From the NCBI GenBank assembly GCA_963920575.1, contig OY986973.1, forward strand, positions 20,875,851-20,939,850: a DNA stretch of 64,000 nt. Direction: 5' to 3'. The position numbers and the translations under genes were made by a program. Source of the stretch: Narthecium ossifragum (taxonomy: Eukaryota > Streptophyta > Magnoliopsida > Dioscoreales > Nartheciaceae). Shown one piece after another: positions 9,058-61,530 of the stretch (its first letter is position 1; every line of letters starts with the position of its first letter). The notes below the pieces were generated by a model. It saw nothing but the letters and a program-made list of their open reading frames with translations, did no database searches and had not been told where the DNA came from.

Positions 9058-10638
9058 TGACACGCCTTGAAAAGTGTCGTTACCTTAACAAGGACGCCAG
9101 AATTACAAATTTAAAAACCGAATCACTACTAACTACTTAAGGGGGTAGATAGCAATAAGTCCGGGTCGGTCCACTGGGAAAACAGGATTAAGTCTAATTA
9201 CCACGCATAGTTCTAAATCAAAGGTTAAGGGAGATGGATGATAGTTGGTCTTTAAACTACCTTTAACTCGAATTAAACTAAATCAGGAGAATAACAATAA
9301 GAGAAAAGGCTAGGAAGTTCTAATCCGTAATCGAGAGCTATCTAGGCATTCCTAGGATAAGAGCAATTCAATAAGTTCAAGATGGTTTTCTAGGGTTGAT
9401 AGAAGATCGGCTAGGTCCACTATCACTCAACATAGATTCATTAGAAGCCTATGTCGGAATGAAGAACAAATCAGCGGATAATTGGTATGAAAATAATCAA
9501 AGTGGTTCTAGCACTTTGAGATCGCCTAATCGATAAAGATAAAGAATGAATCGTAGGTTACAATCATAGGTCTTAATGGTTCTAGCATTAAGACAGTGGT
9601 TCTAGCACTCCTACAATCATAAGCTAGGGTTTAGAATCCAATCCAAAGATCTAACATGGTTCTAGCATGAAAGCAACTTGGAAAAATCCTAATCCTAGCC
9701 TCTAACATGCAATGCTCAAAACCAGCGAGCGTAATCTCAGCGTAACTTTCACATCCGAACTCAAAACGAGGCGATTCAAGATTCGTTGGAAAGCTAAGAC
9801 AGAGATCTACAACTCTTATGTTTTGAGTTTTCACAAAATCCGGCTGTAAATCCACGAAAAAATCGAGACAAGACAGACCAAAATTAGGGCGCAAAGAGCA
9901 AACAATACATTCACCATAAGAAAGATTACCAATAGATATATAAAATCCGAATTCTATCCATTAAACCATCATAAAATACATGCTCAGATCCATAGGAAAA
10001 CCGAAATAAACTCCCTATTACATCATAGAATTTCATAGACTAAAGATCTAGCTACTCATCTTGAAGAGACGTTCCATCGGGGAAGGTTGATGACGCGCTC
10101 CCGCCATGGATCTATCTTCAAGATCTAACCCTAATGTTTATGGAGGAAGAAGAACCAAGGAAACACCCAGGAGGAGAGGAAAATTCATCCTTGGGTGGCT
10201 GCCAAAAATCCTCTCCCAACACCTATTTATAGGCCTTAATAAAACCCTAACTCGGATTAGATCTCGGCCCTTTATTTTTCCTCCAGCACAAAATGAGATC
10301 GATCTCCATTGGGAAGAAGATCGATCTCCTTCGTTCTACGAACTCTGGATCTGGCATACGCCAGACCAAGATCGATCTCCTTTAGGATGAAGATCGATCT
10401 CCTTTGCTTTGACTGGACCGCTACTTGCTGGAATAATGAGATCGATCTCCTTTAAGATGCAGATCGATCTCATTTACGCAGGATTGCCAGAATCACTTCG
10501 TTTTAGCACCAAACTTGACCTAATCTTCGTTGAAGGCTCTTATACCTGAAATGCACTAAAGACCATCAAAATAGCATTGCTCGGAGACTAACAGGACCTA
10601 GTTAAAGGGGCGATTTGTGCACTTTTCACGCGTTATCA
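9058..10638 (-). repeat. Athila-type 3' LTR
   Basis: This 1581-bp LTR starts TGACACGCC and ends GCGTTATCA on the plus strand. It carries three GATCGATC pairs between 10297 and 10469. It matches 24174-25799 along its whole length except for an extra segment of about 45 bp in the other copy. Confidence 0.93.
10297..10469. repeat. Paired GATCGATC modules in Athila 3' LTR
   Basis: GATCGATC begins at 10297, 10319, 10370, 10392, 10440 and 10462. These make three pairs, each exactly 22 bp start to start. The 14-nt spacers differ in sequence. With flanking bases each pair forms a 30-bp dyad whose arms match for 8-10 bp. Confidence 0.9.
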
Positions 10639-10648
10639 CACCCCCCAA
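10639..10648 (-). other. Polypurine tract of the Athila-type element
   Basis: Directly inside the 3' LTR the minus strand reads AAGTTGGGGGGTG. This is the expected position and composition for the plus-strand priming site of an LTR retrotransposon. Confidence 0.8.
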
Positions 10649-11471
10649 CTTGATCTTTGCTAGTCCTCGAGCAAAGCAAGATAAAAATAAACATAAAACA
10701 GTAAACCTAACTAGCCACTTTCGTAGGTCTCACGATTACACTTAGCATGTGTAACAAGCCTTTAAACCCCTGGGTGGCCCCAGTGGAGGAGTTATAGTCT
10801 GCTGAGGGTTTCCGGTGATGATACCCACAAACATCAATACATCCCCTTGACTATGCTATTAGAAATCCATCATAAGAATCATCAACTCTAATGCATGAAT
10901 CAGAAATATTACCCATGAACGTACCCTTCAACTTCTAGTCACATAAAGATATAGCAAAGCAAAACATGCCATAACATACTTCCAATATTACCCATGAACG
11001 TACCCTTTTTTTTTCATTTCATTTCAGGTAATTCAACTGTTTTACGCGAACAGCACGCTGGCTAGGCACACTGCCCGGTTACTAAGTTGAACACCCTACA
11101 CTTTCAGACACATACTTTTTTTTTTCGAACAGAAAATTGCATGTATTCATGTATCTTCTATGACATGACAAAGAACTGTAAATCTATCCCAGTTTCAGGC
11201 TTAGAATCTAATGTCAACTCTTCGACATGTGAAAGTGAACATGTGCAGTAGAATATGTCAAGCTATCCTTAAACCATGGTAAAAGTGTTAAAGTATAGAA
11301 GTAATATCAGGCATTGTAAAAATTTACTGTCCCATATATACCAGATGAGTATCAGAATAATTCATAAAATAAATTTCTAAAACAAGCATCTTTGTCAATA
11401 CTCTCATAATTTCCTTCCTTTGGCACAATTCAAGGGATGTACAATATGTTGTTAAAATATTAAGCATGAAA
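10639..11471. other. Athila internal non-coding region (3' side)
   Basis: There is no coding signal here. The word ATTACCCATGAACGTACCC is found twice, at about 10908 and 10987. The region ends where a solo LTR has inserted, and the element continues at 13882. Confidence 0.5.
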
Positions 11472-12775
11472 TGTCGCGCCCTGACCCGCCGAGCGCACCC
11501 GGGCCGGGGACCGCGAGGGGAAGACACCTACAACCACTAGCCTCGACTGGCGGAAACAGCCGAGACAAAGGCCCAGCTAGCGGAAACAGCTGGACACCAC
11601 AGAGAAAGAGCGAAGCAGGAAACAAAAGCTAACAACATCTATTACAAACACATAATTGAGTAACAACAGGAGAAACCTAGATACAACAGATCTAGAACAA
11701 GGGGTAAACAGTCCCCCAAAAAGAAAGCAAGCCACACTGCCCACCGGGGTCTCCACGAAGGCGCAGACAAAGCCATCCTGACCCTCAGACATGGTCAGGA
11801 GCCGCCGCGCTGCCACTGGACGACCGACGGGGCAACGGTTGGGAGAACCGGGCACCAGCACCTGCAACAAACACAGTCCAGGTAGGCATGAGCAACAGCT
11901 CAGCAGGGTCCCACTCCACAACCCCCACAAGAAAGGCAAACCCAAAGACCAACCCTGAAGCCAAGTGCTGAGGCTTGCCAAGGATCCCATAAATCCTATC
12001 GATAACCCGAAGGGTCCCTGTCCCGAGTACGTCTTCGACTGCCACTGTCTATGGATGGACAAACTCCGACTGTCCCTGACACAGGGTGGACATGACGCTA
12101 CTGGTAGGACACCCTTCCCCAAGCGGGACCTCCACACTTGGCGGAACGACCGAGGTTACGACAACCACCTCCCAGCACTCCAAGCCACAGAGCCACGATC
12201 CCTGACTCCCGACCAGGCACTAAGTCTAAGGACTGCCAAGGTTCCATAACCCTATCGATGCCCCAAGGGCTCCCGACATGAACCTTGCTCATCACCCTAA
12301 GCACCCAACAGGGGAAAAGGTTCCATGCGGGATCACCCTCTGCACCAACAGAGGAACAGAACCGTGCAGGACACCTCCACTTAGCACATGGGTACGGAGT
12401 ACAAGGGGGAAAACACCCACCCAAACTAGCCTAACATGTCTAATGCACAGTTAAGCAAAACAGGGCAGATAGATATTAAAACTGTAAATAAGCAACAAGG
12501 CAAGGGCACACCTTCGGCCCATTTATACTAAACACTCCCGAGGGTCATGATTCCCTCGGTTCACCACAAAGCGGTAAAGGGCATACCTTCAGCCCATTTA
12601 TTCTAAGCACCCCGAGAGACATCACCCTCTCGGTTCAACCACAGAGCTGTAAACATTCACGCATAAATCACTACAGGATAAACCCCGAGGGTAAAACCGT
12701 AAAGACCATTTACATGCGAAGCCCTGCGGGCAAAACAGCATTTAAAACAAGTAAAACCCTCTCTGCTGCTCAAAG

Positions 12776-13080
12776 GATCGATCCTTCCCGAAGGGAGGAT
12801 CGATCACCCAAGAAACAGTGAGCCTCCCTCACTGTCGAGCCAAAGAAGATCGATCACTCCTTCCAAGGAGATCGATCTTTTTGGTGACAGAGGGCACCCT
12901 TCCAGTCGCACCAAGGAAGATCGATTCTTCTCCCAGGAAGATCGATCATTCTCGGGACGAAGGGTAACCAGGCTGACCCAAGTCCCATGATCGATCTCCT
13001 CCCATAAGAAGATCGATCATGTGGCTGGGCGTAGCAAACTAACACCAGAGGATCGATCACTCCACCCAGGAAGATCGATC
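12776..13080. repeat. Paired GATCGATC modules, chromovirus-type LTR, cluster 1
   Basis: Pairs start at 12776/12798, 12848/12870, 12919/12940 (the first is GATCGATT), 12989/13011 and 13051/13073. Four of the five have exactly the 22-bp pitch; the third is 21. Several spacers are themselves partly self-complementary, such as TCCC-GAA-GGGA in the first pair. Confidence 0.9.
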
Positions 13081-13639
13081 ATGATGGGTTCCGATGTACT
13101 TCCGGCCGGGAAAACCGCCGGAATACACAACCAAACCTCACCAAAATTGGTGGGCTGGTAGATCTGATAACCACGAAGCTCCTCAAGGCTTCAAAACCGG
13201 AAAAACACCAACTCCACAAGGAGATCTAAAACGAAAACCAAAACCGGATTCAAAACCTCGGAAAACAACCGGAGTTTAGAATGAGAACCCTACCTCCTCA
13301 ACGCAGCTTCGATCCCCAAGTCCTACCCCAGGACCTTCCTCGCCTTGCCACGAACCCAACGAGCCTTCAAGCTCCCGGAAAGATGGCCGGAGGAGGAAGA
13401 ACGGAGGAGGAGAAGGAGCGGTCTCAACCGGGGAAGAAACAGAGCCGCGCGAGGGAGAAGAAGAAGAGAGGAAGAAAGGAAGGGGGGAAAGGGCGGGTAA
13501 GGCCGGGGAAAAGCCGGCGAACCCGGGGAAAAGCCGGGAGAGGGGAGGGAAAGTCTTCCCTCCCCTGACAGGGGAAGCGACGGCCACCGCGGTGGCCGTC
13601 CTTCGAAAGCCACCGACAAGGACTTCCAGGCACAGGAAG

Positions 13640-13669
13640 GATCGATCCTCCATGACCAAAGGATCGATC
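13640..13669. repeat. Paired GATCGATC module near U3 start
   Basis: GATCGATC occurs at 13640 and 13662, 22-bp pitch. The arms extend to 10 bp (GATCGATCCT/AGGATCGATC). It lies about 215-240 nt from the LTR start. The related LTR at 59163-61530 has its array at the same distance. Confidence 0.88.
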
Positions 13670-13881
13670 ATCCCTGCCCAGAAGTGCAAACTTGGGCTGA
13701 AAAACGGGCCCAAGCCCAGAACACCCAAGCTAGGGTCCACCTAACCTTTCTAACAAACACAACCATCAAGCAAGGCCTGTGTGTGCACACCCAGTGTGAA
13801 AAACGACCGCCAAGGCGCAATTTCCCAAATTGCCCTTGGGATCAACCACCAGCTATAGGAATAGAGGGGCAGGTCCTCACA

Positions 13882-14508
13882 TGAAGTCTATGAATGCAAC
13901 ACCCCCCAAATTAGACGGGTTTGTCCTCAAGCACGTAAATAGGGTAAGGGGTAGGGATAACCTGATGAAGCATTGTTGTCAGAAGCCTGAATCAGGTAGT
14001 GTCCTTGGGGAAGGTAAACCATATGTGCCAACCAGATTTAATTGGGAATACCACGTCTGTTCGGGACTTACATCCCTACGAAATGCGGATCATACAACAG
14101 AAGCCTGGAGAAGATTAGAAGAAATACCCCGTGATCGCACAGAAGAATATAATGGAATAAACATGTAAAATTAGAGAAAAATTGGGCAGCATCTCCTTTA
14201 TTTATTCAGTCAACCCAAGGGCAGTACACACATTCATTACACATTGACAGGAAAAGTAAACTACCCTATGCTTCCACCTGCAGGAAAACAAGATTTAATC
14301 GCATGAGCCATCACCATATCACATATCCACATCGAGTCAGGTAAGCACACCCATAGTACCCACCCCATAAACAAAAGTAAGTAAGTAAATACATCAAAAT
14401 GTCAAGCCAGAAACAGAGATGAGCTAAGTACTAAAATGTCGTACAAATGACGAAAAACACAGTGCTCATCCCCAAAAGTCGTGAACCTCGGTACAGGCCA
14501 TATAAACA
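13882..14508. other. Athila internal non-coding region
   Basis: This is the continuation of the Athila internal region on the right side of the nested LTR. It includes the spacer downstream of the 476-residue ORF. No further gene was recognised. Confidence 0.5.
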
Positions 14509-15939
14509 CTAAAGTGCAGGGTGAGGATCAGACGGTCCAGGAGACTGGCCGTCGGCTGGGGCTGTAGGAGAAATACCCAAATGCTCGCAAATCCGAGCGA
14601 CATCCCGCTGAAGTACATCCTGTCGTCTACTAACGACAAGCACTTCGTTGTAGATGTCCCTCAACGTGAGCTGCTCAGGTCCAAACGTGGGGGCTGGTGT
14701 GAGGTCTGGCTCAGTCTGGGGTTGAACAGGCTGCTGGCGGCGCCGGCGTCTCTGTGGTGCGCCGACTTTGTTCATATGCCCGACGACTTTAGCCCAAGTG
14801 GCATGACCAAATCGGGCATAAGCTAAAGCATCGGCGGTTACAGTCGGTTCATTCTCCGGTACGCACCCACGGGATGACAGAAAAGCGGAGATCAGGCAGG
14901 GATGCGGGGCAGCTTTGGTCCTGTGGCTGTACAAACAATCGCGTACGACGCCACGGTAATATAACGCCATATCCTCAAGGATCAACTGGGAGACGTCCAA
15001 GGACCACCCTTTGGCGATCAGCCACAGAGCTGATAACCAAAGTCCAGTCCTATATTGATCATGGCTGCACTGGAAGACGTTCCGGCGCAGCACATCATCA
15101 ACAAACCAGAGGGACAGATGCAGCTCAGATCGTGAAAACATTGGTCCACTGGTCCTCTCCGGATGAAGGAACACTCCAATATCGGCGTCTGACGATATCT
15201 CCTCATCGGCGGACAGACGATGTAACCCAAGAGCATGGTGTGGAATTCCCAGAATCTCCCTGATGATCTCGGCGTCAAAAATGATCTCGTGGCCTTCAAT
15301 GGTTGTTCGGAAGCCAATTGCAGGGGGTGTTGTCTTGTTCACTTGCTGGTCGCCATCGCCACTGTAGGGAATTGCTGTCATGTTCTGGTAGAACATGCAG
15401 ACTAGTCGCGGGTAGACGGCGGTGGAAGGGTAGCAGATCGGCAACAGCTCGCGAGCCTCTAGAGTAACCACGCCCTCACTGGCAATGTCCACCGTCCGCA
15501 GACGGTCGATGTCGAATGTGAACTCGAGGTTCACTTCGCGCTGCCAACTCGGAATGAGGCCGGCGGTGATGGTAGGACCAGTAGGTGGGCGAGTGAGCTT
15601 GCCTTTCTTCGTCGGACGCGCCGGAGCAGGAGTGGATGTGGCGCCCTCGGAAGCTTTTCGCTTGCCTTTTGAAGACCCGTCCGGAGCTTGAGATGGACCG
15701 GCTGGAACCTCGGCGGTTGGTGTGCGGCCATGGGGAATGTTGGGTGGAGAAGATGATTGCGGAGCCGCCGACGGCACCTCCGGTGGAACAGTGGAGATTG
15801 GAGGAGACGAAGGTGGGGATGGCGAGGGTACATATGCCGGATCGGAGGAGGAAGACGACAGAGATGGGGAGGGAACCCTCGCTTTACTAGAAGTAGAAGC
15901 CCTTGCTTTGACAGCAAGCTTCTTGGCTCTTTTGGGCAT
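14509..15939 (-). CDS. Athila accessory ORF, putative plant transposon protein (env-position)
   Basis: The 476-codon ORF is read from the ATG at 15939, which starts MPKRAKKLAVKARAS and follows a non-coding leader; the frame is open further upstream to 16260. Residues 1-10 are basic, like a nuclear signal. Residues about 20-130 are rich in Pro and Ser (low complexity). From about 140 onward comes a folded part with IGFRTTIEGHEIIFDAEIIR, ILGIPHHALGLHRL and LHLSLWFVDDVLRRNVFQ. This resembles the 'putative plant transposon protein' region found downstream of integrase in Athila-group elements. No membrane segment or signal peptide is clear, so an envelope role is not supported by what is seen. 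The function is unknown. The frame has no stop. Confidence 0.65.
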   Translation of the reverse strand: MPKRAKKLAVKARASTSSKARVPSPSLSSSSSDPAYVPSPSPPSSPPISTVPPEVPSAAPQSSSPPNIPHGRTPTAEVPAGPSQAPDGSSKGKRKASEGATSTPAPARPTKKGKLTRPPTGPTITAGLIPSWQREVNLEFTFDIDRLRTVDIASEGVVTLEARELLPICYPSTAVYPRLVCMFYQNMTAIPYSGDGDQQVNKTTPPAIGFRTTIEGHEIIFDAEIIREILGIPHHALGLHRLSADEEISSDADIGVFLHPERTSGPMFSRSELHLSLWFVDDVLRRNVFQCSHDQYRTGLWLSALWLIAKGWSLDVSQLILEDMALYYRGVVRDCLYSHRTKAAPHPCLISAFLSSRGCVPENEPTVTADALAYARFGHATWAKVVGHMNKVGAPQRRRRRQQPVQPQTEPDLTPAPTFGPEQLTLRDIYNEVLVVSRRQDVLQRDVARICEHLGISPTAPADGQSPGPSDPHPAL

Positions 15940-16254
15940 GGCTCGAAGCGGGAAGAGTGGCGGCCGGCAGTGAAGAAGGAAGGAAAAGTTAGAAAGAGGG
16001 TTTGGGGTTTTGAGGGGGTATGGGTTTATGGCGATGAGGAAGGTATGGTGGGAAGGGATGGCAATGGATGAGGGTGATCGCCGGAGGATGGCCGGACTTA
16101 AGTCGGACGGAGGTCGCAGGCGAAGTGGTAAGGCATCGTCGGAGAAGATGAAGGAGCAATAGAGCAGAGCGATGTCCAAGGGAGAGGGAAAAAAGAAATA
16201 AGATCGCTCTGCTTTGCTGACGCTGGCAAAATAGGGGCCCAGACACCCGATCCA

Positions 16255-16284
16255 GATCAATCTCGCTTGGAAAGTAGATCGATC
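16255..16284. repeat. GATCGATC-type pair upstream of accessory ORF
   Basis: GATCAATC at 16255 and GATCGATC at 16277 keep the 22-bp pitch. The pair lies directly upstream of the open frame that contains the 476-residue ORF, on the minus strand. Confidence 0.8.
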
Positions 16285-16503
16285 TCGATTAAAAAAAATA
16301 GAAAAACCCCCGAAAATAAATTCACCAAACTTAAATTTTATTAGTTAAAGAACCCTACATAGGAAATATAAAGGCATAATTCTAGGAAGCAGGAAATCAA
16401 ATCTAAAAGCACTCAAAGCAAATGAAAGCAATTAAAATAACAATTCAGGAAGTAAAGCAAACTACCACGAAAATAAAAATAAGAATCCAAAACATCATAA
16501 GGC

Positions 16504-17055
16504 CTAATTATCACTGTCCTCATCATCCTCATCATCCTCCTCGTCGTCATCCTCTTCTTCATAATCCTCCTCAGACATATCCTCGAGGTCCTCGTCAAAA
16601 TCCGAGTCAGTCCTCCTTGGTGTAGGTGGACGATCCGGATCGTCGCTCGCATATGGCGACGCAGGTTCGGAAGCAGATGGCGATCCATAGGCGGCCCTAG
16701 GAAGCACCACGGTTGTTGACCCATCCGGTTGCTTGAATACAATCCATGGATCATCCAGGTCCGGGTGCTGGCGTAGGTAGGTTGCCAATTTTTGCATCGA
16801 GTAATATGTGAGGTTCATGCCATGAAACTCTACGCCTTGAAGGTAATTAATCGTTCCGCCTGGAGTGTCATTATGCCAAGCAGTCGTGCCAGGTGGAAAG
16901 GTGGCGAATTGGAGTTCATCATTGAGGACTGCATTGGATGAAAGGGACTCGATTGAGTCATGTGACGAATCGGAGGCTTGCGATGCTGGCGATCCGGGAT
17001 CCATGATGTCGTCCTGGGACTTGTAGGAGTGGTCGTCGGATCCAGAATCAGACAT
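16504..17055 (-). CDS. Athila accessory ORF 2, acidic-tailed protein of unknown function
   Basis: The 183-codon ORF starts at the ATG at 17055 (MSDSGSDDHS). The N-terminal 50 residues are rich in Ser and Asp. The middle, about residues 55-110, looks folded (LQFATFPPGTTAWH, GVEFHGMNLTYY). The last 35 residues are an almost pure Asp/Glu tail ending EDDEDSDN. The tail suggests a protein that contacts histones or other basic partners, but this is inference. I know no family for it. It is flanked by GATCGATC pairs at 17124 and, further on, 16255. Confidence 0.55.
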   Translation of the reverse strand: MSDSGSDDHSYKSQDDIMDPGSPASQASDSSHDSIESLSSNAVLNDELQFATFPPGTTAWHNDTPGGTINYLQGVEFHGMNLTYYSMQKLATYLRQHPDLDDPWIVFKQPDGSTTVVLPRAAYGSPSASEPASPYASDDPDRPPTPRRTDSDFDEDLEDMSEEDYEEEDDDEEDDEDDEDSDN

Positions 17056-17123
17056 GGCTGTAATAGATTTGTCAATTAGTTTAGTCGATGATAAGATGAG
17101 AGATCCCATAAGTGGAAGGATGA

Positions 17124-17153
17124 GATCGATCTCAAGAGGTAGGGAGATCGATC
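17124..17153. repeat. GATCGATC pair upstream of acidic ORF
   Basis: GATCGATC occurs at 17124 and 17146, 22-bp pitch, about 70 bp upstream of the acidic ORF's start on the minus strand. Confidence 0.88.
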
Positions 17154-17766
17154 TCACATCCCCAGTCTGAGAAGAATAATATTAACTGAGAGATAGAAAC
17201 AGGGGATGTTTAGGTGAAAACGGAGAAGGAACGAAAGAAAAATCAAATAAGGAAAAGGGACTCGAAGACTACGAAGGAAGAAGGGATACGGAGGACACCA
17301 ACTTTGGTCGCCGGCGTCAGTGGTCGGAATCCATGGCGAAAGCCATGGGTTCCGCCGGTAGAGACACAGGAACTGAGAGGGAAAAGAGAAACGAGAAGAA
17401 GGAAAAGATGGGATCCCTACTGAATAATCCGTGGACGACTTGCAAGTGCAATCCTCGCTGAAACGCCGAAGAAGCTGCTCTCCCCGCCGGAACCGGAGAA
17501 GACGCTCGAAGAACCCACCCGAGGCTATGGTTAGAAGTGATGAAACACCCGGCTCATGGCTGTATAAATAGAGCTCTCACCGCCTCTAAGAGTGGTAGAT
17601 AGATTTAAGGACACTTAGTCGGAAAAGGAATTAAGGACAGAAGGAGGAAAGGAATTAAGGAAGGCCGGTTGTAAGGAAGGCGGTGGAAGGCCGGCGGTCC
17701 GAGTTTGAGTTTGAGTCTGCTTGGTTGCTCTGTTTCCTTTTTTTATTTTTCAAGGATCCCGATAGA

Positions 17767-17866
17767 GATCGATCTCAAGTCCGCATGAGATCGATCTGGC
17801 TTAGTCTATCACCTAGGTACGTGCTTGGTCCAAGAAGATCGATCTCCAAAGTCATGGAGATCGATC
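17767..17866. repeat. Two GATCGATC pairs between integrase and accessory ORFs
   Basis: Pairs lie at 17767/17789 and 17837/17859, both with a pitch of exactly 22 bp and different spacers. Confidence 0.88.
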
Positions 17867-18111
17867 CCTTTTCTCCAGAACTGCAGAACCAGGGTGATTA
17901 ACCGAGATTCTGCCCTCAATAGTATCTACTCACACTACCCTCAAGGTATAAACAAAGAGCAACCATGCACACAGTGATAAACGCAAACGACAAAACTTAC
18001 AAAAAGCAAATAAATAAATAAATAAATAACAAGTAACTACTAGAAATCGATGGGTTGCCTCCCATCAAGCGCTCGGTTTAACATCGCTAGCCCGACGAAG
18101 TTAACACCCAA

Positions 18112-21100
18112 TCACCGATACTGTGGTTCGTCTAATGTCATTGTAGGGTCTAGCTGTGGAGGATTTTCGATGTACGGTTTCAATCTATGACCATTCACCG
18201 TGAAAATAGAGCCAGATTTAGGATTCCAAATCTCAAATGCTCCATGAGGAAAAACTTGTTTTATTGTGAATGGACCATTCCACCTAGACCGAAGTTTTCC
18301 CGGGAAGAGTCTAAGCTTGGCGTTAAAAAGCCAAACTTTATCACCAACATTAAAAACTCTTCGATGAATGAACTTGTCATGATACGCTTTAGTCCAAGCC
18401 TTATAAATTAGAGAATTGTCATAGGCTTCATTACGGATTTCTTCTAGTTCATTCAATTGAAGCAAGCGGTTACTACACCCAGTCCCTTGGTTCCAGTTCA
18501 CTTTATAAATATTTAGCCAAACTTTATTCATGAGGCTTACTGGGAGATTGCAATGTTTGCCATACACCATTCTGAATGGGGACATACCAATCGGGGTCTT
18601 ATAAGCTGTACGGTATGCCCACAAGGCCTCATCCAGTCGCATAGACCAATCTTTTCTATCGGCCCGCACAACCTTTTCTAGAATCCGCTTAATTTCTCGG
18701 TTTGACACCTCTACTTGGCCACTAGTTTGAGGATGATATGGTGTGGCAACCTTATGAGAGATCCCGTATTTATTAAGGGTTTGGCGGAAGTACCTATTCA
18801 TAAAGTGGGATCCTCCATCACTAATGATCGCTCTAGGGTGACCAAATCGAGAAAAGATGTTCGAATGAAGGAATTTGATAACAACTCGATGATCGTTTGT
18901 CCTAGTAGCTACAGCTTCTATCCACTTAGAAACATAATCAACTGCTACTAGGATATACATGAAGCCGTTTGAAGGAGGAAAAGGACCCATAAAATCAATG
19001 CCCCAAACATCAAAAATTTCACAAACAATGATAGGAGTTTGTGGCATTTCATTTCTGCTGGATATATTACCAAGTTGTTGACATCTAATGCAAGCTTGGG
19101 AAAAACTATGAGCATCACGAAATATAGTCGGCCAGTAGAAACCAGATTGGAAGATTTTGGCTGCAGTTCTCCGGCCAGAAAAATGCCCCCCACAAGCATG
19201 AGAATGGCAAGTGGTTAAGACAGAAATAATTTCAGATTCAGGTACACAACATCGCATAATTTGATCAGGACAATGTTTGAAAAGAATTGGATCATTCCAG
19301 ACATAGGATTTAGTTCGAGAGAAAAATTTATCTTTGTCTTGTTTGGTCCAATGAGAAGGAATGAATCATGTAACAAGATAGTTCACGATATGTGCATACC
19401 AAGGTGTAGGAGGATGATCAACAACAAAAAGGTGTTCATCAGGGAATGTGTCATTAATCGGAGTTGAATCGTTGATCACATCTAAGGGCAGTCTAGATAA
19501 ATGATCAGCTACTACATTCAAAGCTCCTTTTTTATCTCTTAATTCAAGATCAAATTCTTGCAAAAGCATAATCCAACGGATTAACCTTGGTTTGAGTTCT
19601 TTCTTCCCTACAAGATATCTTAAAGCGGAATGATCGGTGAATATAATGACCTTGGATTCAAGAAGATATGAACGGAATTTTTCCAAGGCAAAGATTACAG
19701 CTAGCAACTCCTACTCCTTCTCAGTTGTGGTATAATTAAGCTGAGCTTCATTCAAAGTCTTGCTAGCATAATAGATAACTCTGGGCAATTTATCAATCGT
19801 TTGCCCAAGAACAGCACCCACGCAACGATCCGAAGCATCACACATAATCTCAAAAGGGTAATCGTACACAGGAGGATGACAAATAGGTGCTGAAGAAAGA
19901 GAGTCCCGAAGGATATTGAAAGCTTTAAGGCATGATTCATCGAACACGAAAGGAACATCTTTCGCAAGCAAGGGACAGAGAGGACGAGATATTTTACTAA
20001 AATCTTTGATAAATCTACGGTAAAATCCCGCATGCCCCAAGAAGGATATGATTTGACGTACTGAGGAAGGAGGCGGCAATTTAGAAATTAATTCCAGTTT
20101 TGCTTTGTCAACTTCTATCCCCCAACTCGAAATCACATGACCAAGCACAATTCCTTCATTAACCATAAAATGACTCTTCTCCCAACTTAACACAAGGTTT
20201 GTTTCGACACATCTAGCAAGTACTCTAGAAAGATTTGATAAACAAGATTCAAAGGTTTTGCCAAAGACAGAAAAATCATCCATAAATATTTCTAGGAATT
20301 GCTCAATCATGTCTCCAAAAATTGAAAGCATACAACGTTGGAACGTAGCTGGAGCATTGCACAAACCAAAAGGCATTCTCCTATATGCAAAGGTTCCAAA
20401 GGGACAAGTGAAGGTCGTTTTCTCTTGATCGACTGGATCTATAGCTACTTGGTTATAACCTGAGTAACCATCAAGGAAACAGTAGTATGCTTGACCCGCT
20501 AATCTTTCTAAAATCTGGTCGATAAAAGGCAAGGGAAAATGATCCTTTCTTGTCAATGCATTCAGTCTCCTATAGTCTATGCAAACTCTCCAACCTGTAG
20601 TCTGACGGGTTGCGATTTCTTTTCCTATTTCATTTTTAACTACCGTAATCCCGGATTTCTTAGGAACCACCTGAGTTGGACTAATCCATTTAGAATCAGA
20701 GATCGGGTATATGATACCAGCATCTAGGAGTTTCACTACCTCTTTCATGACCACGTCCTTCATCAACGGATTAAGACGTCGCTGCATTTCTCTAACAGTT
20801 TTAGTTTCATCCTCTAAATGTATACCATGCATGCAGATAGAAGGGTCAATACCTCTAAGATCTCCTATGGACCATCCAATGGCTCTCCTATGCAACCTAA
20901 GAACTTCAATCAATTGAGATTCCTGAGTTTTGGTTAACGAAGAGGAAATAATCACATGAAGCGTAGAATCAGCTCCAAGGAAGACATATTTAAGATTAGA
21001 AGGTAGTGTTTTCAAATCAAGCTGAGGTGGCATAATCAGAGATGGTAAGGCTGGAGTTGAAGAAGTAAGTGGTAGGGGTTCAATTGGAATCCTTTTCCAA

Positions 21101-23904
21101 GAAATATTACACATATCCTCATACAAGTCATAACCTTTCACATCCTCAAGCATAATCAGATCATCAACATCACCAGTCAGTATACCATTCTGCTCATCCA
21201 ATATCTCACCATGTAATTCAGGAAAATCAATATTCTGATCTGGTAAATCATCTCTAGTTACCACATCATCATCATTGAAAAATGAAGCATCACATGCACT
21301 TACATAACTTTCACTTGATACATCATCATCATGCACTATCTTATACATCGCATCATCCACACACATATCGATATCATCATTGTTCATTAAAGCGTTTACC
21401 ACGAAACAATCATCATCATATGCATGGCGTTTTGACGTATGAAAAATATTCAATTTCAATTCCATATTCCCAAAAGTAAGTGTCATAATACTATCCCTAC
21501 AATTAATGCAAGCATTAGCTGTAGCTAAGAAAGGTCGACCAAGAATTATAGGAACATTTTTCTTAGTTTGCAAGCTTGGTTCCATATCCAACACCACAAA
21601 ATCCACATGAAACACACATTGACCAACTTTAACTAGAACATCTTCAAGCACACCCCGTGGGGTTTTAATTGAACGATCAGCTAACTGAAGAGTCATAGCA
21701 GTGGGTTTAAGTTCTCCTATACCAAACTTGGAATATAACGAATAAGGCATGAGATTCACGCTAACTCCTAAATCAAGTAAAGCTCCATCAATCAAATGGT
21801 TTCCTATAGTGCAAGAAATAGTAGGAGTACCTGGATCTTTAAGTTTAGGAGGAATATCACTACGAAGGATTGAGCTTACTTGTTCAGTCAAGAAAATCTT
21901 TTTGGAAACATGAGATCTAGATCGACGCTTTTGAGTGCATAAATCTTTCAGAAATTTCGCATAAGACGGAATCTGTTTGATAGCATCCAACAAAGGAAGA
22001 TTGATATGAACTTTCTTGAAAACTTCAACCATCTCATCAAGTTTAGAATTTTTAGAAGGACGTGAAGTCGGATCTACCAGGGCCTCAGGAAAAGGAATTT
22101 TCGGAACATAGGTCCTAGGATTCGGTTCAGGCGATGAAGTAGAATCATGAGGAGCAGGAATTGAAGTTTTGGGTAACACCTCATCCTTAGATGCATGCAA
22201 GTCTCTATCTAATGGAACTTGAGAAGTAGATGGAGTTGTATTGAGAGGTTGAGATGTAAGATCATGATCTGGACTTTCCTCATCCGGTTTCTCAATATTA
22301 GCAAAGGTCTTACCACTACGAAGAGTCGTAACGGCTTGAACTTGTTCATGAGAAGACTCGATCAAATGTTGACCTCTAGGATTCGGAATAGGTTGACTCG
22401 GCAATGTACCTTCTTCCCTTTTTGACAAGGCGTTAGCTATTTGACCCATTTGAGCTTCTAACTTAGCTAATGCTTGAGTATGAGAATGAAGTACTTTGGT
22501 AAACTCATCCATAGCTGGACCTTGGTTCGGTTGGGGAAAAGAAGGTTGGTTTTGAGGTTGTTGAGGTAGCGGCGCTCCATATGATGTGCCTCCCCAAGGT
22601 TGAGGCTGTTGAGATTGATATGGTCCTTGGGAAGGAAAATTTTGAGGAGGCTTATACTGAGGTTGGAATTTAGGAGGAAAACCCGGCTTTTGATTGTTCA
22701 CAGGTGGTCTAGGATTGAATGAATCAGACTGTTGACCAGGTGTTCTCCAAGAGAAATTTGGGTGATTGCGTAAACCAGGGTTATATGTATTAGAATATGG
22801 ATCATAAGCTGGTTTGGACTGATTATAAATTGCATTCACATGCTCCTGCACTAATTCTGGATATTGAAGAGCTAAATGACAGTCCGTGACATCGTGACCC
22901 GAATTTGAACATAAGAAACAAATATCTCCTGACTGCGGTGGCAATGGAGGATTTGAAGATACTACTTGGTTTGTAGTCTGAGTCAAAACTTGGTCAAGCT
23001 TCCTACTTAGAATATCTACTTGTTGAGCTAAACGAGTAGATTCATTTAATTCCAGGGTACCTCTAGATCTAGTTTGATTGGGCGACTCTCGGGTATTCCT
23101 AGAAGATGAAGCATGATGTTGGGAATTCTCCGCTAACCTCTCAAAAAGCCTCCATGAATCATCAAGAGGATTCGTAATAAACACTCCTCCACAGGCGGCA
23201 TCAATAGTCATTTGATGTCTCTCCTTAAGACCATTATAAAAATTCTCTATGATAGCCCATTGAGGGAATTGATGGTGAGGACACTTCCTAAGGAGTTCCC
23301 TATATCTATCCCATGCTTCATGAAAAAGTTCATCATCAGCTTGCTTGAAGGATGAAATTTCTTTCCTAAGATCACTGGTCTTGGTAATTGGAAAGAATTT
23401 AGCAAGAAATTGGGTTTGAAGTTGAAGCCAAGTCGTGATAGATCTGGGCTCTAAAGATGTAAGCCAATATTTTGCTTTGCCCTTGAGAGTAAAGGGAAAG
23501 AGTTTCAACTTCCATGCATCGTCAGTAAAATTATTGACCTTCACGGTCGAACTAATCAAGATAAATTCTTCTATATGGTTGTAGGGATCTTCATGAGACA
23601 GACCATGAAAGGCAGGAAGAGATTGAAGGAACTGAGGCTTGATTTCATAGTGGGCAGCTCCTATTACTGGGGGTTGAATGCATGAATTTGAAGTAAATGA
23701 AGTAGGAATGTAAAAGTCTTTCATATTCATGCGACCTTGATCTTCATGATGGGTCGGATTTTCATCATGATCATGATGACCGTCTAAGTTATGGTTCTCC
23801 ATGGATGAATCAGATGAAATATTCACAGGTCTATGCACTATAGCACGAGAATTCAAGAATTCTTGCAATGTAATATTTAAATCTGAATCTTCACTAACAT
23901 TCAT
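18112..23904 (-). pseudogene. Athila-type gag-pol polyprotein, one frame with two in-frame stops
   Basis: The 1931-codon frame holds Gag (capsid region about residues 95-260), a CCHC zinc knuckle at 329-342, an aspartic protease with LLDLGVSVNLM (D-L-G rather than D-T-G), and reverse transcriptase with FMDD near residue 1208. RNase H ([14 protein letters not shown]) and integrase follow. Integrase keeps a zinc-binding His/Cys region and the D-D-E core ([24 protein letters not shown]). A TAG at 19711-19713 lies at the RT/RNase H junction after YTTTEKE. A second stop, TGA, lies just after the RNase H open frame ends at 19366. Both are in frame with no indel, so each is a simple point change. 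The stops separate RT, RNase H and integrase into three open segments: 19711-23904, 19366-19710 and 18112-19257 with its upstream part. The product would act in reverse transcription and insertion of the element. Confidence 0.9.
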
Positions 23905-24149
23905 CCATATACCACATCACAATAACAACCAAGGTTTAGAGATACAAACAGTGCTATCTCGGTGAGGCTTTGACCGATGCTCCTTCTCCGCTTGGAAGGT
24001 GCTTCGTCAAAGTCCCTAACACACGATCAAAAAGATAGGAAATATTAGCACTTGTACTATTTTTGGTCTTTTATATAATAAGCGACAGAAATAAAAAAAA
24101 ACTAATTGAAATAAAACTACACTAGGCAATTAATCTCAATAAACCGTGT

Positions 24150-24167
24150 TCCCCGGCAACGGCGCCA
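24150..24167 (-). other. Primer-binding site complementary to tRNA-Asp
   Basis: The plus strand reads TCCCCGGCAACGGCGCCA, identical to the 3' end of plant tRNA-Asp including the CCA. It lies 6 nt inside the 5' LTR. This is the usual primer site of Athila-group elements. Confidence 0.92.
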
Positions 24168-24173
24168 AAATTC

Positions 24174-25799
24174 TGACACGCCTTGAAAAGTGTCGTTACC
24201 TTAACAAGGACGCCAGAATTACAAATTTAAAAACCGAATCACTACTAACTACTTAAGGGGGTAGATAGCTATAAGTCCGGGTCGGTCCACAGGGAAAACA
24301 GGATTAAGTCTAATTACCACGCATAGTTCTAAATCAAAGGTTAAGGAAGATGGATGATAGTTGGTCTTTAAACTACATTTAACTCGAATTAAACTAAATC
24401 AGGAGAATAACAATAAGAGAAAAGGCTAGGAAGTTCTAATCCGTAATCGAGAGCTATCTAGCCATTCCTAGGATAAGAGCAATTCAATAAGTTCAAGATG
24501 GTTTTCTAGGGTTGATAGAAGATCGGCTAGGTCCACTATCACTCAACATAGATTCATTAGAAGCCTATGTCGGAATGAAGAACAAATCAGCGGATAATTG
24601 GTATGAAAATAATCAAAGTGGTTCTAGCACTTTGAGATCGCCTAATCGATAAAGATAAAAAATGAATCGTAGGTTACAATCATAGGTCTTAATGGTTCTA
24701 GCATTAAGGCAGTGGTTCTAGCACTCCTACAATCATAAGCTAGGGTTTAGAATCCAATCCAAAGATCTAACATGGTTCTAGCATGAAAGCAACTTGGAAA
24801 AATCCTAATCCTAGCCTCTAATATGCAATGCTCAAAACCAGCGAGCGTAATCTCAGCGTAACTTTCACATCCGAACTCGAAACGAGGCGATTCAAGATTC
24901 GTTGGAAAGCTAAGACAGAGATCTACAACTCTTATGTTTTGAGTTTTCACAAAATCCGGCTGTAAACCCATGGAAAAACCGAGACAAGACAGACCGAAAT
25001 TAGGGCACAAAGAGCAAACAATACATTCACCATAAGAAAGATTACCAATAGATATATAAAATTCGAATTCTATCCATTAAACCATCATAAAATACATGCT
25101 TAGATCCATAGGAAAACCGAAATAAACTTCCTATTACATCATAGAATTTCCTAGACTAAAGATCTAGCTACTCATCTTGAAGAGACGATCCATCGGGGAA
25201 GGTTGATGACGCGCTCCCGCCATGGATCTATCTTCAAGATCTAACCCTAATGTTTATGGAGGAAGAAGAACCAAGGAAACACCCAGGAGGAGAGGAAAAT
25301 TCGTCCTTGGGTGGCTGCCAAAAATCCTCTCCCAACACCTATTTATAGGCCTTAATAAAACCCTAACTCGGATTAGATCTCAGCCCTTTATTTTTCCTCC
25401 AGCACAAAATGAGATCGATCTCCATTGGGAAGAAGATCGATCTCCTTCGTTCTGCGAACTCTGGATCTGGCATACGCTCGACCAAGATCGATCTCCTTTA
25501 GGATGAAGATCGATCTCCTTTGCTTCGACTGGACCGCTACTTGCTGGAATAATGGATCGTCTCTTCAAGATGAAGATCGATCTCCTTTGCTTCGTCTGGA
25601 CCGCTACTTGCTGGAATAATGAGATCGATCTCCTTTACGCAGGATTGCCAGAATCACTTCGTTTTAGCACCAAACTTGACCTAATCTTCGTTGAAAGCTC
25701 TTATACCTAAAATGCACCAAAAACCATCAAAATAGTATTGCTCGGAGACTAATAGGACCTAGTTAAAGGGGCGATTTGTGCACTTTTCACGCGTTATCA
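24174..25799 (-). repeat. Athila-type 5' LTR
   Basis: This 1626-bp LTR is a copy of 9058-10638. It is about 45 bp longer because a segment around the GATCGATC modules (near 25560-25625) is duplicated in tandem. Confidence 0.93.
25413..25630. repeat. Paired GATCGATC modules in Athila 5' LTR
   Basis: Copies start at 25413/25435 and 25486/25508 (22-bp pitch), 25575, and 25623. A decayed copy, GATCGTCT, lies at 25555. Confidence 0.9.
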
Positions 25800-25804
25800 A
25801 CTAC

Positions 25805-58299: not shown

Positions 58300-59096
58300 A
58301 TAGATCTTAATCTGTCAAGATCTATCATCCTGCATGCAACGTACACCGAAACAAGTAGAGAAGTATCCTCGCTTTCAAGAAAGAAAGGCAAATCAAGCAT
58401 TTGCTTGTTTATTTGTTAACAACCTTTTATCACACTATCTATCCTCATGGTTGTGCTCAAGGGATCTTGTGTACGCACACGCAAGTATCAGGGCCTTCGC
58501 AATATACTGAACAAACATGGGCATAGCTGAAACGGGCAAGACACACTTGGGAGCATGTGGCCTGGGTTTAGCCGGGAAGAGTGAAAAAAATCTCTACTGT
58601 AGACCGCGCATACCTTGTTTTCATTTTGACTGTCTCCCTAGTCGGGAACAATACCGCCGAAGACAAGCAGGGTTATAGTCTCAACTAATAAACAAAAAAA
58701 CTCCATCGAAGGCGATGATTTTTATAGGATGGATATCCGATTGCTCTATCTATCGTAGTAGGCTCACACATGCTTGACAAATAAATGAAGAAAAATTCAA
58801 TAGCTTGTAGCTTGACGGAACATACCAAGGGAGAAAGTGAGAACAATGGCCAGGAGATATGCAGTGACGTGTGATTTCTTCATGGTTTTAAAAAATTTGG
58901 TTGTATAGGCTCACAACAAAAGAGGACCTAATATACAAGAAGTTGAAGTTAGTTCATACCACATTGTTTTTCTAATGGATTACATGCACTAGATGTATAT
59001 TGGCATGCGCAAGATATGTTCATCACATGCACAAGATATATTCAATCCTTTTTTTCTTCTTTCCTTTTCCTTTTCTCAAAAATGGTAGCAAATTAA
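58300..59096 (-). repeat. Duplicated defensin-like locus, unit 3
   Basis: Gene and flanks match units 1 and 2 (TTTCAAGAAAGAAAGGCAAATCAA, in part, downstream; ATTACATGCACTAGATG upstream). Homology stops at 59096 where a fold-back MITE starts. Confidence 0.7.
58457..58883 (-). pseudogene. Defensin-like (DEFL) gene, copy 3, probably broken
   Basis: Exon 1 (58883-58826) is intact, 58 nt, and encodes MKKSHVTAYLLAIVLTFSL with a good donor. The cysteine-rich end reads CSQVCLARFSYAHVCSVYC then CVCVHKIP and a stop at 58459-58457, so the C-x3-C and C-x-C marks are kept. In the frame of those cysteines a TAA lies just upstream, and no AG found by eye joins exon 1 to it in frame. The sequence between differs strongly from copies 1 and 2. 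It is most likely a decayed copy; an unrecognised splice cannot be excluded. Confidence 0.55.
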
Positions 59097-59162
59097 CAAT
59101 GATTTGTGCACATGCCCACATGGCAAGTGCATTTCACACTATCGGTAGTAGGCTACCGATAG
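59097..59162. mobile_element. Fold-back MITE (copy d), left tip
   Basis: GATTTGTGCACATGCCCACATGG is followed by CACTATCGGTAGTAGG-CTACCGATAG, the arm and inner inverted word of the family. It is cut at 59163 by the chromovirus LTR; the other arm would lie beyond the window. Confidence 0.65.
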
Positions 59163-61530
59163 TGTCGCGCCCCGACCCGCGAAAGCCCAACCGGGCCGGA
59201 CGACGCGAACCGGAACCTACAAAACGCGGAAAACAAAGCTGGCGAGGGTTCCCTCTAACCTATTGGTCTCCATAGCAATTCATCAAAAACATCTCCAATT
59301 AAAACAACAATGATTAGCATAACCTCGAACCACCGATTAAAACTCAAAGTATTAATACAAATCCTCGGAGAGGGGAAGATTCAAATACAACATCACTCCC
59401 GTATGAGACTAACTAACAAAAGGGTAAAAGCAGTAAATATCGCCACCTCTCAAGAGCCACCAGGCGCCGCCGCACCGCCGACCAACTGCCCGGTAGGGGC
59501 CACAGAAGAAGAACTGACGCCTGCACCTGCAAAACGCAGCCCGGGTAGGAGTGAGCACTAAGCTCAGTAGGGATCTACACTACGACACACAGAAAGAAGA
59601 GGGAAACGCAACAGTGTCGCCCTCAAACCAGACTCGAGGGAGCTACAATGGTCCCATTACCATTCACCGGTGATCTCTAGGCATATCCAACCATGGTCAC
59701 CCCAACGGACTGGGCCCATCCTGGATACGCCTAGTGTCGCAGGGTTCCAGCTGTGGTCACCCAACTCGCCATGGGTCCACACTGATGCCCCTACTGGCAG
59801 GAACGGACACTGCCCAAAGAATAAGACCCGTCACCGGTGGCATCCTCAACACCTGACTTGAGGCCGACACGACCTCTACAATCATCAAGCATCAGGTGTA
59901 CCAGTCCTCTAAGTTTATCATCGAAACGACTGGACACCACCATTCAAACCGGGTCCAAACAGCCCAACCCCGGTCCTAGGGCTAAGTCCGAGCTTCCAGC
60001 CTCTGGACGGCGACCTAAGGATCACCCACGCCCTAACCAATGCAACTAATGCACAATCAACAATGCATGCTATGGCATACACAAACAAGTGATAGGCATG
60101 CAATAGTATGATAAGGCATCATATAAGTCTACTGGATCGCTGCAGTGGTACTACCAACCGCTGCCAGCCGATCCGCAACGGGTCCCGGCATTACGACGGT
60201 ACCACGACCGTCAACCGCAGACTCCTGCAACGGGAAGCAACCCCGAAAACCGCTGATGAATAGTAACGATATAATATTATATTCCGAAATATAATATTAT
60301 AATCAAAAACACTCAAAGCCTCTACTTAGGGGCTAATTGATCCCGTCGATCCGACGTCCAAACGACGTCGGATTCAAGATCCAACTTAGTCACCAGTAGG
60401 TATATATACCAGAATCATCATATCCAAAATTCATAATCATCCAACGGTTGGATTAACGGGAAAACGCTAATCAAAATCGTTAATCAAACTAACTTACCCA
60501 TTAATTGCTGCAACGCAGCCCTCCAGAAAACAATTCATAACAATTTGTAGAAAAATAGAAATATTACGAAACAAGATGGAATGGAAAGCTAACGAATAGA
60601 TCTACAACTCTTATGTTTATGAAAACTCAAGATCACGTACACGCCGGCCGGAAAACTCACCGCAAGCCGGCTGTTTCTCAAGAACAGCAGAAAACCAGAA
60701 ATCCGAGACTAATCATGCATAAAACCTACTCAGATCTCAACTGATTAACATGAAACCTAAATCAGTAATTCTAACATGTATAAGGAAACCAACAAAGCAA
60801 GGATCAACAAGATCCAACGGCTAGATCTCAAGAAAACCCGAAAAGAACATCAGTAAGTATAACCCTACCTAGCTGCGCTTTCCTCGGCTGATTCCCCGCG
60901 GTTTGATCACCAACAAGCCTCCAAACCACTTCAGGGATCTTCCTCTCGTTGCCACGAATCCAACGAGCCTTAGAACGCCGAAAAAGATGGTCGGAGGAGG
61001 GAGAACGGAGGAGAAGAAGTTCGCCGGCGGTAAAGGGAAGAAACAGAGCACCGCGGGAAGAAGAGAAGAAAGAAGAAGAAGAGAAGGGAAGGGAAGGGAA
61101 GAAAAGGGAGGAAAAGCCTGGGAAAAGCCGGAGAAAACGGGGGAAAGCTGGGAGAGGGGAGGGGAAGTCTTCCCTCTCTGACAGGGGAGAGCGACGGCCG
61201 ACGGCCGTCCTTGCGAAAGAGAAAGAAAGCACCGACTCGAGCCAGATCGATCTCCAGGGCATGTGAGATCGATCTCCTTTGCAATCCAGATCGATCTCCT
61301 TAGCCATCCAGATTGATCTCCTTTACTCAGAAAGGCAAACTTGGGCTAAAACACAAGCCCAAGCTCATATCTTCCGATCTCGGGTTCACCTAGCCATTCT
61401 AAACAAACACGAACACAGACAAGGCCAGTGTGTGCACACGCGGGTGTGAAACAAACCAACAAGGCGTAATTTATCAAATTGCCCTTGCGGTCTACAGCGA
61501 GCCACAGGGGTAGATGGACAGGTCCTCACA
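59163..61530 (-). repeat. Chromovirus 3' LTR (subfamily B)
   Basis: This 2368-bp LTR, on the minus strand, runs from TGTGAGGACC to CGGGTCGGGGCGCGACA. It is related to 11472-13881 and to the outer LTR at 1-4589. Unlike those it adjoins coding sequence, which identifies the family's owner. Confidence 0.92.
61245..61318. repeat. Four GATCGATC units at 22-bp pitch
   Basis: Units start at 61245, 61267, 61289 and 61311 (the last is GATTGATC). All three steps are exactly 22 bp, in U3 about 212-285 nt from the LTR start. Confidence 0.92.

What the first reader, a model, noticed from the sequence alone, without database searches (positions are those of the whole stretch)
10297..61318. Two-palindrome module GATCGATC-N14-GATCGATC with fixed pitch, shared by different LTR families
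Read directly: at least 16 pairs of GATCGATC (or one-base variants) have a start-to-start distance of 22 bp in almost every case. One pair is at 21 bp, one decayed pair at 20, and the 39741 LTR uses 23. The 14-nt spacers vary freely while length is kept. Positions are 10297-10469, 12776-13080, 13640-13669, 16255-16284, 17124-17153, 17767-17866, 25413-25630, 40116-40331 and 61245-61318. The modules occur in Athila LTRs, between Athila accessory ORFs, and in chromovirus LTRs, which are separate lineages. Two palindromes two helical turns apart with a free spacer suggest a site for a pair of dimers on one face of DNA, or an RNA hairpin. Inference: a shared regulatory or anti-silencing site, host or element encoded, gained by exchange or convergence.
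Basis: partly seen in the sequence, partly recalled or inferred. Interest (0 to 1): 0.85.

Follow-up and report, generated by a model that had tools for sequence, protein, structure and literature searches.

The report
Paired palindrome arrays in retrotransposon LTRs
Two different kinds of plant jumping gene carry arrays of the same 8-letter DNA palindrome, mostly in pairs about two helix turns apart, in their control regions, which suggests that they may borrow the same host switch to turn themselves on.

Summary
GATCGATC is the commonest 8-mer in the window: 40 copies, against a mean of 1.2 in shuffles. Of 19 distinct pairs in arrays, 15 have pitch 22, one 21, three 23. Attributions change: 12776-13080 and 13640 lie in a chromovirus-type solo LTR nested in the Athila-like element; the pitch-23 LTR at 39741-41470 is an Athila-type solo LTR. 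Both lineages do share the box. Spacers are not free: they run pyrimidine to purine, and some resemble one another by duplication. Boxes lie 66 bp above the Athila TATA box and upstream of both Athila accessory ORFs. That is the layout published for Ty1/copia Sirevirus palindromic motifs (PMC2829016), here in Ty3/gypsy elements with a fixed two-box pitch. Best reading: tandemly grown cis-regulatory sites for a shared host dimeric factor; GATA factors, which read GATC in plants (PMC11525189), fit only in part. Structured nucleic acid, neutral duplication and exchange between elements remain rivals. The whole-genome search failed each time and no plant relatives were found, so the genome-wide spacing test is undone.

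The parts
9058..25799 (-). Athila-like element with LTRs 9058-10638 and 24174-25799, TSD ACTAC, primer-site and polypurine-like sequences at the LTR borders
   Evidence: (37 differences in 1581 aligned LTR bases, 45 gap columns)
10297..10469 (-). 3' LTR array: three pairs, pitch 22, pair-to-pair 70-73 bp; 170-342 bp from the LTR start
10224..10231 (-). TATA-like TATAAATA, 66 bp from the start of the last box; the 5' LTR has the same at 25347
   Evidence: motif only
25413..25630 (-). 5' LTR copy of the array: six exact boxes, two pairs at 22, with a 67-bp internal duplication
17767..17866 (-). Internal array, two pairs at 22, below the integrase ORF (stop near 18112)
17563..17570 (-). TATTTATA, candidate internal TATA box
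   Evidence: motif only
17124..17153 (-). Internal pair at 22; the ATG at 17109 of the first accessory ORF (201 aa) begins 15 bp further on
16255..16284 (-). Internal pair at 22 (one box with one mismatch), 316 bp above the ATG at 15939 of the second accessory ORF (476 aa; PF20167 at 43.1 bits, cut-off 45)
11472..13881 (-). TEKsolo: chromovirus-type solo LTR nested in the Athila-like element (TGTGAGG...GCGACA; flanks CTTCA/TTTCA, 4 of 5 alike). Scripts used 11473 as its end
13640..13669 (-). TEKsolo pair at 22, 213-242 bp from the LTR start
12776..13080 (-). TEKsolo mid array: five pairs (four at 22, one at 21), 802-1106 bp from the LTR start
39741..41470 (+). SOLO_ATH2: Athila-type solo LTR (87% over the first 142 bp of the Athila LTR, 75% over 126 columns at the other end; flanks AATGC/TATGC, 4 of 5 alike)
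40116..40331 (+). SOLO_ATH2 array: three pairs at 23, mostly GGATCGATCC boxes, plus two variant boxes at 40198 and 40210
59163..61530 (-). TEK2: LTR beside an integrase ORF (62083-63264); chromovirus by recalled resemblance. Scripts used coordinates one base higher
61245..61318 (-). TEK2 chain of four boxes at pitch 22 (one with a mismatch), 213-286 bp from the LTR start at 61530
   Evidence: one search prints 214-287 because it counted from 61531
42106..44724 (+). TEK3b: chromovirus-type solo LTR, exact TSD TGCAC; CGGTCGACCG palindromes (up to one mismatch) at 42941-43278
902..3541 (+). TEK3a: second solo LTR of that family, exact TSD CATAT; CGGTCGACCG palindromes (up to one mismatch) at 1789-2061

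Best explanation
These are arrays of palindromic cis-regulatory repeats in the LTRs and accessory-gene leaders of Ty3/gypsy retrotransposons: the same kind of device as the Sirevirus repeated motifs, built from another box. Shown: box excess, fixed pitch, placement, residual tandem duplication inside some arrays, presence in two element lineages. Inferred: each box (GATCGATC, often AGATCGATCT or GGATCGATCC) binds a dimer of a host DNA-binding protein; two boxes about two helical turns apart let two dimers bind one face of the DNA together; two-box units of about 70 bp were multiplied in tandem, after which spacers drifted while boxes and lengths were kept; the LTR copies serve the main promoter and the internal copies the accessory ORFs. 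The best named candidate reader is a GATA factor, since plant GATA factors read GATC, but that candidate fits only in part.
For: Box excess and pitch. Athila arrays 66 bp above TATAAATA in both LTRs. All 7 exact internal Athila boxes (three sites) fall in the 1,569 bp of leader DNA above the two accessory ORFs, out of 11,126 bp; the leader limits were set after seeing the boxes. Modules of two different chromovirus-type LTRs begin at the same distance, 213 bp, from the LTR start. Self-similarity with boxes masked at lags 70-73 (ATH_LTR3 0.42/0.41, mean 0.25, SD 0.06; TEKsolo mid 0.37/0.36 at 70/71, mean 0.25, SD 0.04), so boxes outlasted the rest of the unit. Published match: palindromic boxes above the TATA box and upstream of ENV in Sireviruses (PMC2829016 section 9). 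AGATCG, one of the six strongest GATC 6-mers in PMC11525189, is in 29 of 40 boxes, and 22 of the window's 142 matches to YVGATCBR lie in 1,406 bp of arrays.
Against: No binding or expression data. YVGATCBR overlaps only 10 of 40 boxes and none in the TEKsolo mid array; GATC motifs act downstream of the start site with minimal effect upstream (PMC11525189 passages), whereas the Athila LTR arrays are upstream of the TATA box. A protein site does not need the extra self-complementarity of spacers and linkers. In TEK2 and ATH_LTR3 the 22-bp spacing is at least partly tandem duplication. The int_a array shows no clear peak at 22 or 70-73 (0.30 at 22, 0.38 at 72, highest 0.43 at 62), and about 80 lags were looked at per array. 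Box conservation between the two Athila LTRs (0 of 48 box columns changed) says little at 2.3% divergence.
Confidence: 0.58

Rival explanations
1. The arrays act as nucleic-acid structure: hairpin-rich RNA (packaging, stability, or a small-RNA source or decoy) or extruded DNA cruciforms. The palindromic boxes are stem arms.
For: In-register Watson-Crick pairs inside 20 unique spacers: 58 of 137, against a mean of 34 and a maximum of 51 in 2000 within-spacer shuffles. With boxes fixed and the rest shuffled base by base within segments (100 shuffles), ATH_LTR3 (z -5.8 sense, -3.9 antisense), TEKsolo mid (-3.9, -6.0) and SOLO_ATH2 (-4.2, -3.5) fold better; ATH_LTR5 does on the sense strand (-2.5). 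Maize Sirevirus palindromes are small-RNA hotspots (passages in PMC5311732 and PMC10760457).
Against: Weak or absent in int_a (-1.5, -1.3), TEK2 (-0.9, -1.0) and ATH_LTR5 antisense (-0.5). Dealing right halves anew among 18 modules gives P 0.009 over five positions but 0.16 (0.10 with G-U) without the first position, so most of the pairing follows from the pyrimidine-to-purine run. G-U over A-C pairs do not exceed that permutation and both strands behave alike: no sense-RNA signature. A hairpin does not need a constant 14-nt middle.
Confidence: 0.2
2. A by-product of tandem duplication: a 22-bp and a ~70-bp unit happened to hold GATCGATC; replication slippage multiplied it, without function.
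For: Lag 70-73 and lag 22 self-similarity; spacer likeness in ATH_LTR3 and TEK2; 4 of 28 linker pairs alike at |z| > 2, the best 3.9; a 67-bp duplication in the 5' LTR.
Against: In TEKsolo (U3 and mid pairs together) spacers are at chance (5.6 of 14 against 5.2 expected), yet 9 of the 10 mid boxes are exact. The same box and pitch appear in two lineages and at four separate sites of the Athila-like element, above a TATA-like box or above an accessory ORF.
Confidence: 0.14
3. The module was copied between Athila-type and chromovirus elements by template switching or recombination; sharing is descent, not convergence (compatible with either function).
For: Four 16-nt words around the box are shared between chromovirus-type and Athila-type arrays; spacer identity between array families 5.4 of 14 against 4.0 expected; recombination among distant Athila families is reported (PMC2410132, start of abstract and passages).
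Against: Flank identity by position between Athila and chromovirus arrays is 0.27-0.38 against 0.25-0.35 expected from composition; box flanks are purine-rich, which raises chance word sharing.
Confidence: 0.25
4. Assembly artefact: GATCGATC is the junction made in proximity-ligation libraries.
For: GATCGATC is named as the Chicago junction sequence (PMC5288721 passage).
Against: The same boxes with the same flanks occur in both LTRs of one element; fixed 22 pitch; 23 in another LTR; 38 of 40 boxes in array-bearing LTRs and Athila internal DNA.
Confidence: 0.01

Closest known systems
Sirevirus palindromic repeated motifs (RM; PMC2829016: abstract passages, sections 9 and 19 read)
   Same: [quoted passage not shown] flanks diverge while boxes stay. 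Their Tnd-1 box ACAATCGATTGT shares the ATCGAT core; their Vitis box CGGTCGACCG is the palindrome found in TEK3a/b here.
   Different: Those are Ty1/copia and the RM was called Sirevirus-specific; here Ty3/gypsy (Athila-type and chromovirus-type). Core here is GATCGATC, not CGG-CCG. A fixed two-box pitch is not described in the sections read.
[quoted passage not shown] 2016; not held, known from passages in PMC5311732 and PMC10760457)
   Same: Complex palindromes in the regulatory LTR region with strong predicted folding.
   Different: Small-RNA mapping there is data; here none. [quoted passage not shown]
Plant GATC motif read by GATA factors (PMC11525189, passages read)
   Same: GATC core; AGATCG is one of six top 6-mers; copies add up.
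   Different: Acts downstream of the start site; full YVGATCBR at 10 of 40 boxes; no palindromic pairing in the passages read ('palindrom' has no occurrence).
CpG-rich variable 5' region of Del (Tekay) LTRs (PMC4029996, abstract, sections 15 and 21 read)
   Same: [quoted passage not shown]
   Different: 'palindrom' does not occur in that text; the GATCGATC arrays here are not clear CpG islands, and the paper finds none in eudicot Del elements.

Membership tests
Sirevirus RM | Element is a Ty1/copia Sirevirus | tested here: not met
   gag, protease, RT and RNaseH matches in one ORF with the integrase ORF downstream: Ty3/gypsy order (order rule recalled)
Sirevirus RM | At least eight copies of one palindromic box per element | tested here: met
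   Athila-like element: 6 + 6 + 7 exact boxes, nested LTR not counted
Sirevirus RM | CGG-CCG core | tested here: not met
   GATCGATC in most arrays; CGGTCGACCG only in TEK3a/b. Tnd-1 is the published exception
Sirevirus RM | Cluster in the upper half of the LTR, upstream of TATA | tested here: met
   Athila-like LTR: 170-342 of 1581, TATA-like box at 408; for chromovirus LTRs the promoter is not settled
Sirevirus RM | Extra copies upstream of the ENV-like ORF | tested here: met
   7 of 7 internal exact boxes above accessory ORF starts; whether either ORF is env-like was not shown
Sirevirus RM | Boxes form CpG islands | tested here: inconclusive
   CpG o/e 1.12 at GC 0.45 (ATH_LTR3 array), 1.09 at 0.50 (SOLO), 0.72 at 0.52 (TEKsolo mid), 1.51 at 0.61 (TEK3b)
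Sirevirus palindromes (2016) | Small-RNA hotspot | not testable with these tools
   no small-RNA data
GATA-read GATC motif | YVGATCBR consensus | tested here: not met
   10 of 40 exact boxes overlap a match, though 22 of 142 matches of the window fall in 1,406 bp of arrays
[quoted passage not shown]
   Athila LTR arrays are upstream of the TATA-like box; the TEKsolo mid array may be downstream if transcription starts in the pyrimidine tract at about 320-500 (composition only), but it holds no full consensus match
GATA-read GATC motif | Bound by GATA factors | not testable with these tools
   no binding data
Athila lineage | Ty3/gypsy element with long LTRs and extra ORF(s) after pol | tested here: met
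   PF20167 at 42-43 bits, just under its cut-off of 45
Athila lineage | tRNA-Asp-type primer site (recalled) | tested here: inconclusive
   TGGCGCCGTTGCCGGGG lies just inside the 5' LTR; the tRNA was not checked
Athila lineage | Place in a reverse transcriptase or integrase tree | not tested
   no named plant references were at hand
Tekay/Del chromovirus | Chromodomain after integrase | tested here: inconclusive
   TEK2: H2C2 zinc-binding (61.6 bits) and SH3_Tf2-1 (93.3 bits) above cut-off, rve 24.5 bits below it, no chromodomain hit in 61495-62082; lineage rests on recalled resemblance
Tekay/Del chromovirus | TEKsolo shares its LTR with TEK2 | tested here: met
   71% over 608 columns from the LTR start; TEK3a/b match TEK2 only in patches

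The most novel reading that the evidence does not exclude
Two retrotransposon lineages of one plant have converged on, or exchanged, one promoter code: a fixed-pitch double palindrome read cooperatively by one host factor (possibly GATA-type), used both for the LTR promoter and for separate promoters of the accessory genes.
Probability: 0.27. Interest if true: 0.75.

Novelty: new variant of a known kind. Interest (0 to 1): 0.5.

Why it matters
[quoted passage not shown] Finding them in Athila-type and chromovirus-type elements, with constant geometry and copies before accessory genes, would make the trait a general solution of plant retroelements. It also gives a small, testable module (two boxes, one distance) for asking which host factor wakes these elements.

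Tried and rejected
Rejected: library-junction artefact. Chance. A general property of GATCGATC pairs in DNA: 4 of 151 pairs at pitch 22 in viral contigs. Chromovirus identity of the 39741 LTR. Sense-strand RNA signature (G-U against A-C). Box-level against module-level symmetry as a discriminator: next to the box 16 of 19 inner, 13 of 19 outer and 27 of 38 within-box pairs are complementary, and at the second and third positions none stands out (8, 11 of 19 and 17 of 38; 7, 5 of 19 and 9 of 38), so this does not decide.

Led nowhere: Rfam gave only a snoR71 hit; no tRNA; no relative of the integrase in viral contigs; no homologue of the stop-to-stop frame of the second accessory ORF among the 7989 candidates scored. 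So neither host nor relatives could be named. Paper searches: GATCGATC with retrotransposon, 17 papers, one opened; printed forms of the box, 254 papers of which 40 were listed, none of the listed titles on plant retrotransposons; palindromic LTR motifs (22 of 22 listed; 20: 13 of 13; 45: 15 of 60; 57: 15 of 70; 69: 15 of 121; 70: 2 of 2). In titles, abstract starts and the passages opened I saw no report of paired GATCGATC modules; that is not proof of absence, since most subscription papers are not held. The TATA-like boxes and the donor- and acceptor-like words in chromovirus LTRs are motif readings only.

Rows left out: the spacing tally counts L001-L004 and L035-L149 (119 loci) and leaves out L005-L034; one search reports 120 stretches, of which 80 rows were shown. 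LTR5 copies were left out of most module counts. One search used 18 unique spacers (no 21- or 19-bp pair), one search used 15 (also without the SOLO ones), one search's pairing count 20. Several scripts took TEK2 as one base higher and TEKsolo as one base shorter than its ends; the coordinates in 'parts' are corrected.

Full report
WHAT WAS CHECKED. GATCGATC occurs 40 times, more than any other 8-mer; shuffles that keep dinucleotides average 1.2 and never make a 22 pair (200 shuffles). With one mismatch allowed, the arrays hold 17 pairs at 22, 1 at 21, 3 at 23 and 1 at 19. Without the second Athila LTR and the 19-bp pair, 19 distinct modules remain (15, 1 and 3), three of them overlapping as a chain. 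Linkers between pairs are 40, 43, 40, 32, 41, 41, 42 and 41 nt, so two-box units repeat about every 70-73 bp in most cases.

WHERE THEY ARE. Self-comparison and ends give this map. An Athila-like element fills 9058-25799 on the minus strand: LTR pair with 37 differences in 1581 aligned bases, TSD ACTAC, gag-RT and integrase ORFs, two accessory ORFs starting at 17109 and 15939. A chromovirus-type solo LTR (11472-13881) is nested after its last ORF and holds 12776-13080 and 13640-13669. At 39741-41470 lies a solo LTR whose ends match the Athila LTR (87% over 142 bp, 75% over 126 columns); it holds the pitch-23 array. The 61245-61318 chain is in TEK2, an LTR next to an integrase ORF (62083-63264) that I take as Tekay/Del chromovirus; that name is recalled, and no chromodomain was detected. 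Two further chromovirus-type solo LTRs with exact TSDs (902-3541, 42106-44724) carry CGGTCGACCG palindromes instead, about 890-1160 and 840-1170 bp from the LTR start, close to where the TEKsolo mid array lies (802-1106).

PLACEMENT. In both Athila LTRs the array ends 66 bp above TATAAATA, and a piece ending in GATCTAATCCGAG, conserved in the SOLO_ATH2 LTR, lies between them. The 7 exact internal boxes, at three sites, all lie in the 1,569 bp of leaders above the accessory ORFs, out of 11,126 bp of internal DNA (leaders defined afterwards); one pair lies 15 bp before an ATG. TEKsolo and TEK2 modules both start 213 bp from the LTR start. Chromovirus promoters are unsettled: a pyrimidine tract at about 320-500, a donor-like AGGTAGGGTT near 587 and 662 in two LTRs and an acceptor-like TTGCAGGTGC near 2003-2265 in four would put the mid array in an LTR intron below the start site, but that is motif reading.

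ARE SPACERS FREE? No. Left halves are pyrimidine-rich and right halves purine-rich. In-register Watson-Crick pairs in 20 unique spacers number 58 of 137, above all 2000 within-spacer shuffles. Dealing right halves anew among 18 modules gives P = 0.009 over five positions, but 0.16 without the first: mostly a shared consensus, not pair-specific covariation. With boxes fixed and the rest shuffled, three of six arrays fold clearly better on both strands, one on the sense strand only, two not.

HOW THEY GREW. With boxes masked, ATH_LTR3 still resembles itself at lags 70, 73 and 22, TEKsolo mid at 70-72 but not at 22, TEK2 at 22, SOLO weakly at 23; int_a shows no clear peak there. Spacer likeness is high in ATH_LTR3 and TEK2, moderate in the Athila internal sites (6.5 of 14 against 3.6) and at chance in TEKsolo. 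So arrays arose at least partly by tandem duplication, and in some the boxes and lengths outlasted the spacers. Pitch 23 in all three SOLO pairs, where a linker homologous to the Athila one is still hinted at (weak match, E 0.18), would fit re-amplification from one unit. Between lineages, flanks agree about as well as composition predicts, except four 16-nt words; spacers between array families are somewhat above their shuffle expectation (5.4 against 4.0 of 14). That leaves room for exchange or for a longer consensus.

MECHANISM. The layout, repeated palindromes above the TATA box and upstream of an extra ORF, is the one described for Sirevirus repeated motifs (PMC2829016, sections 9 and 19), so a cis-regulatory role is the best reading. 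A retained pitch of about two turns suggests paired dimers on one face (inference). Plant GATA factors recognise GATC, and AGATCG is one of six top 6-mers in a reporter screen (PMC11525189 passages). Here 29 of 40 boxes hold AGATCG, but only 10 overlap the full consensus and none in the TEKsolo mid array, and that motif works downstream of the start site, against the Athila placement. I hold GATA at about one in four.

LIMITS. One window, no genome, no plant relatives, no host name. The count of independent origins is small: two Athila-type LTR families with the internal sites of one, and two chromovirus-type LTRs.

Noticed in passing
23267-23373 (+): Match to the plant C/D-box snoRNA family snoR71 (51.8 bits, cut-off 40), antisense to the gag-pol ORF of the Athila-like element.
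   Followed up: no
1789-2061 and 42941-43278: Arrays of CGGTCGACCG palindromes in chromovirus-type solo LTRs, the same palindrome as the published Vitis Sirevirus repeated motif.
   Followed up: partly
11472-13881, 59163-61530, 902-3541, 42106-44724: Acceptor-like TTGCAGGTGC near 2003-2265 in four LTRs and, in two, a donor-like AGGTAGGGTT near 587 and 662: a possible intron inside chromovirus LTRs.
   Followed up: partly
25485-25632: 67-bp duplication (2.2 copies) inside the array of the 5' Athila LTR, not reported for the 3' LTR; a young array change.
   Followed up: no
8394-8470: 22-bp tandem repeat (3.5 copies, 98% matches) about 0.6 kb outside the Athila-like element, without the box.
   Followed up: no
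29540 and 43186: The only two exact boxes outside GATCGATC arrays; 43186 lies in the CGGTCGACCG array of TEK3b.
   Followed up: partly
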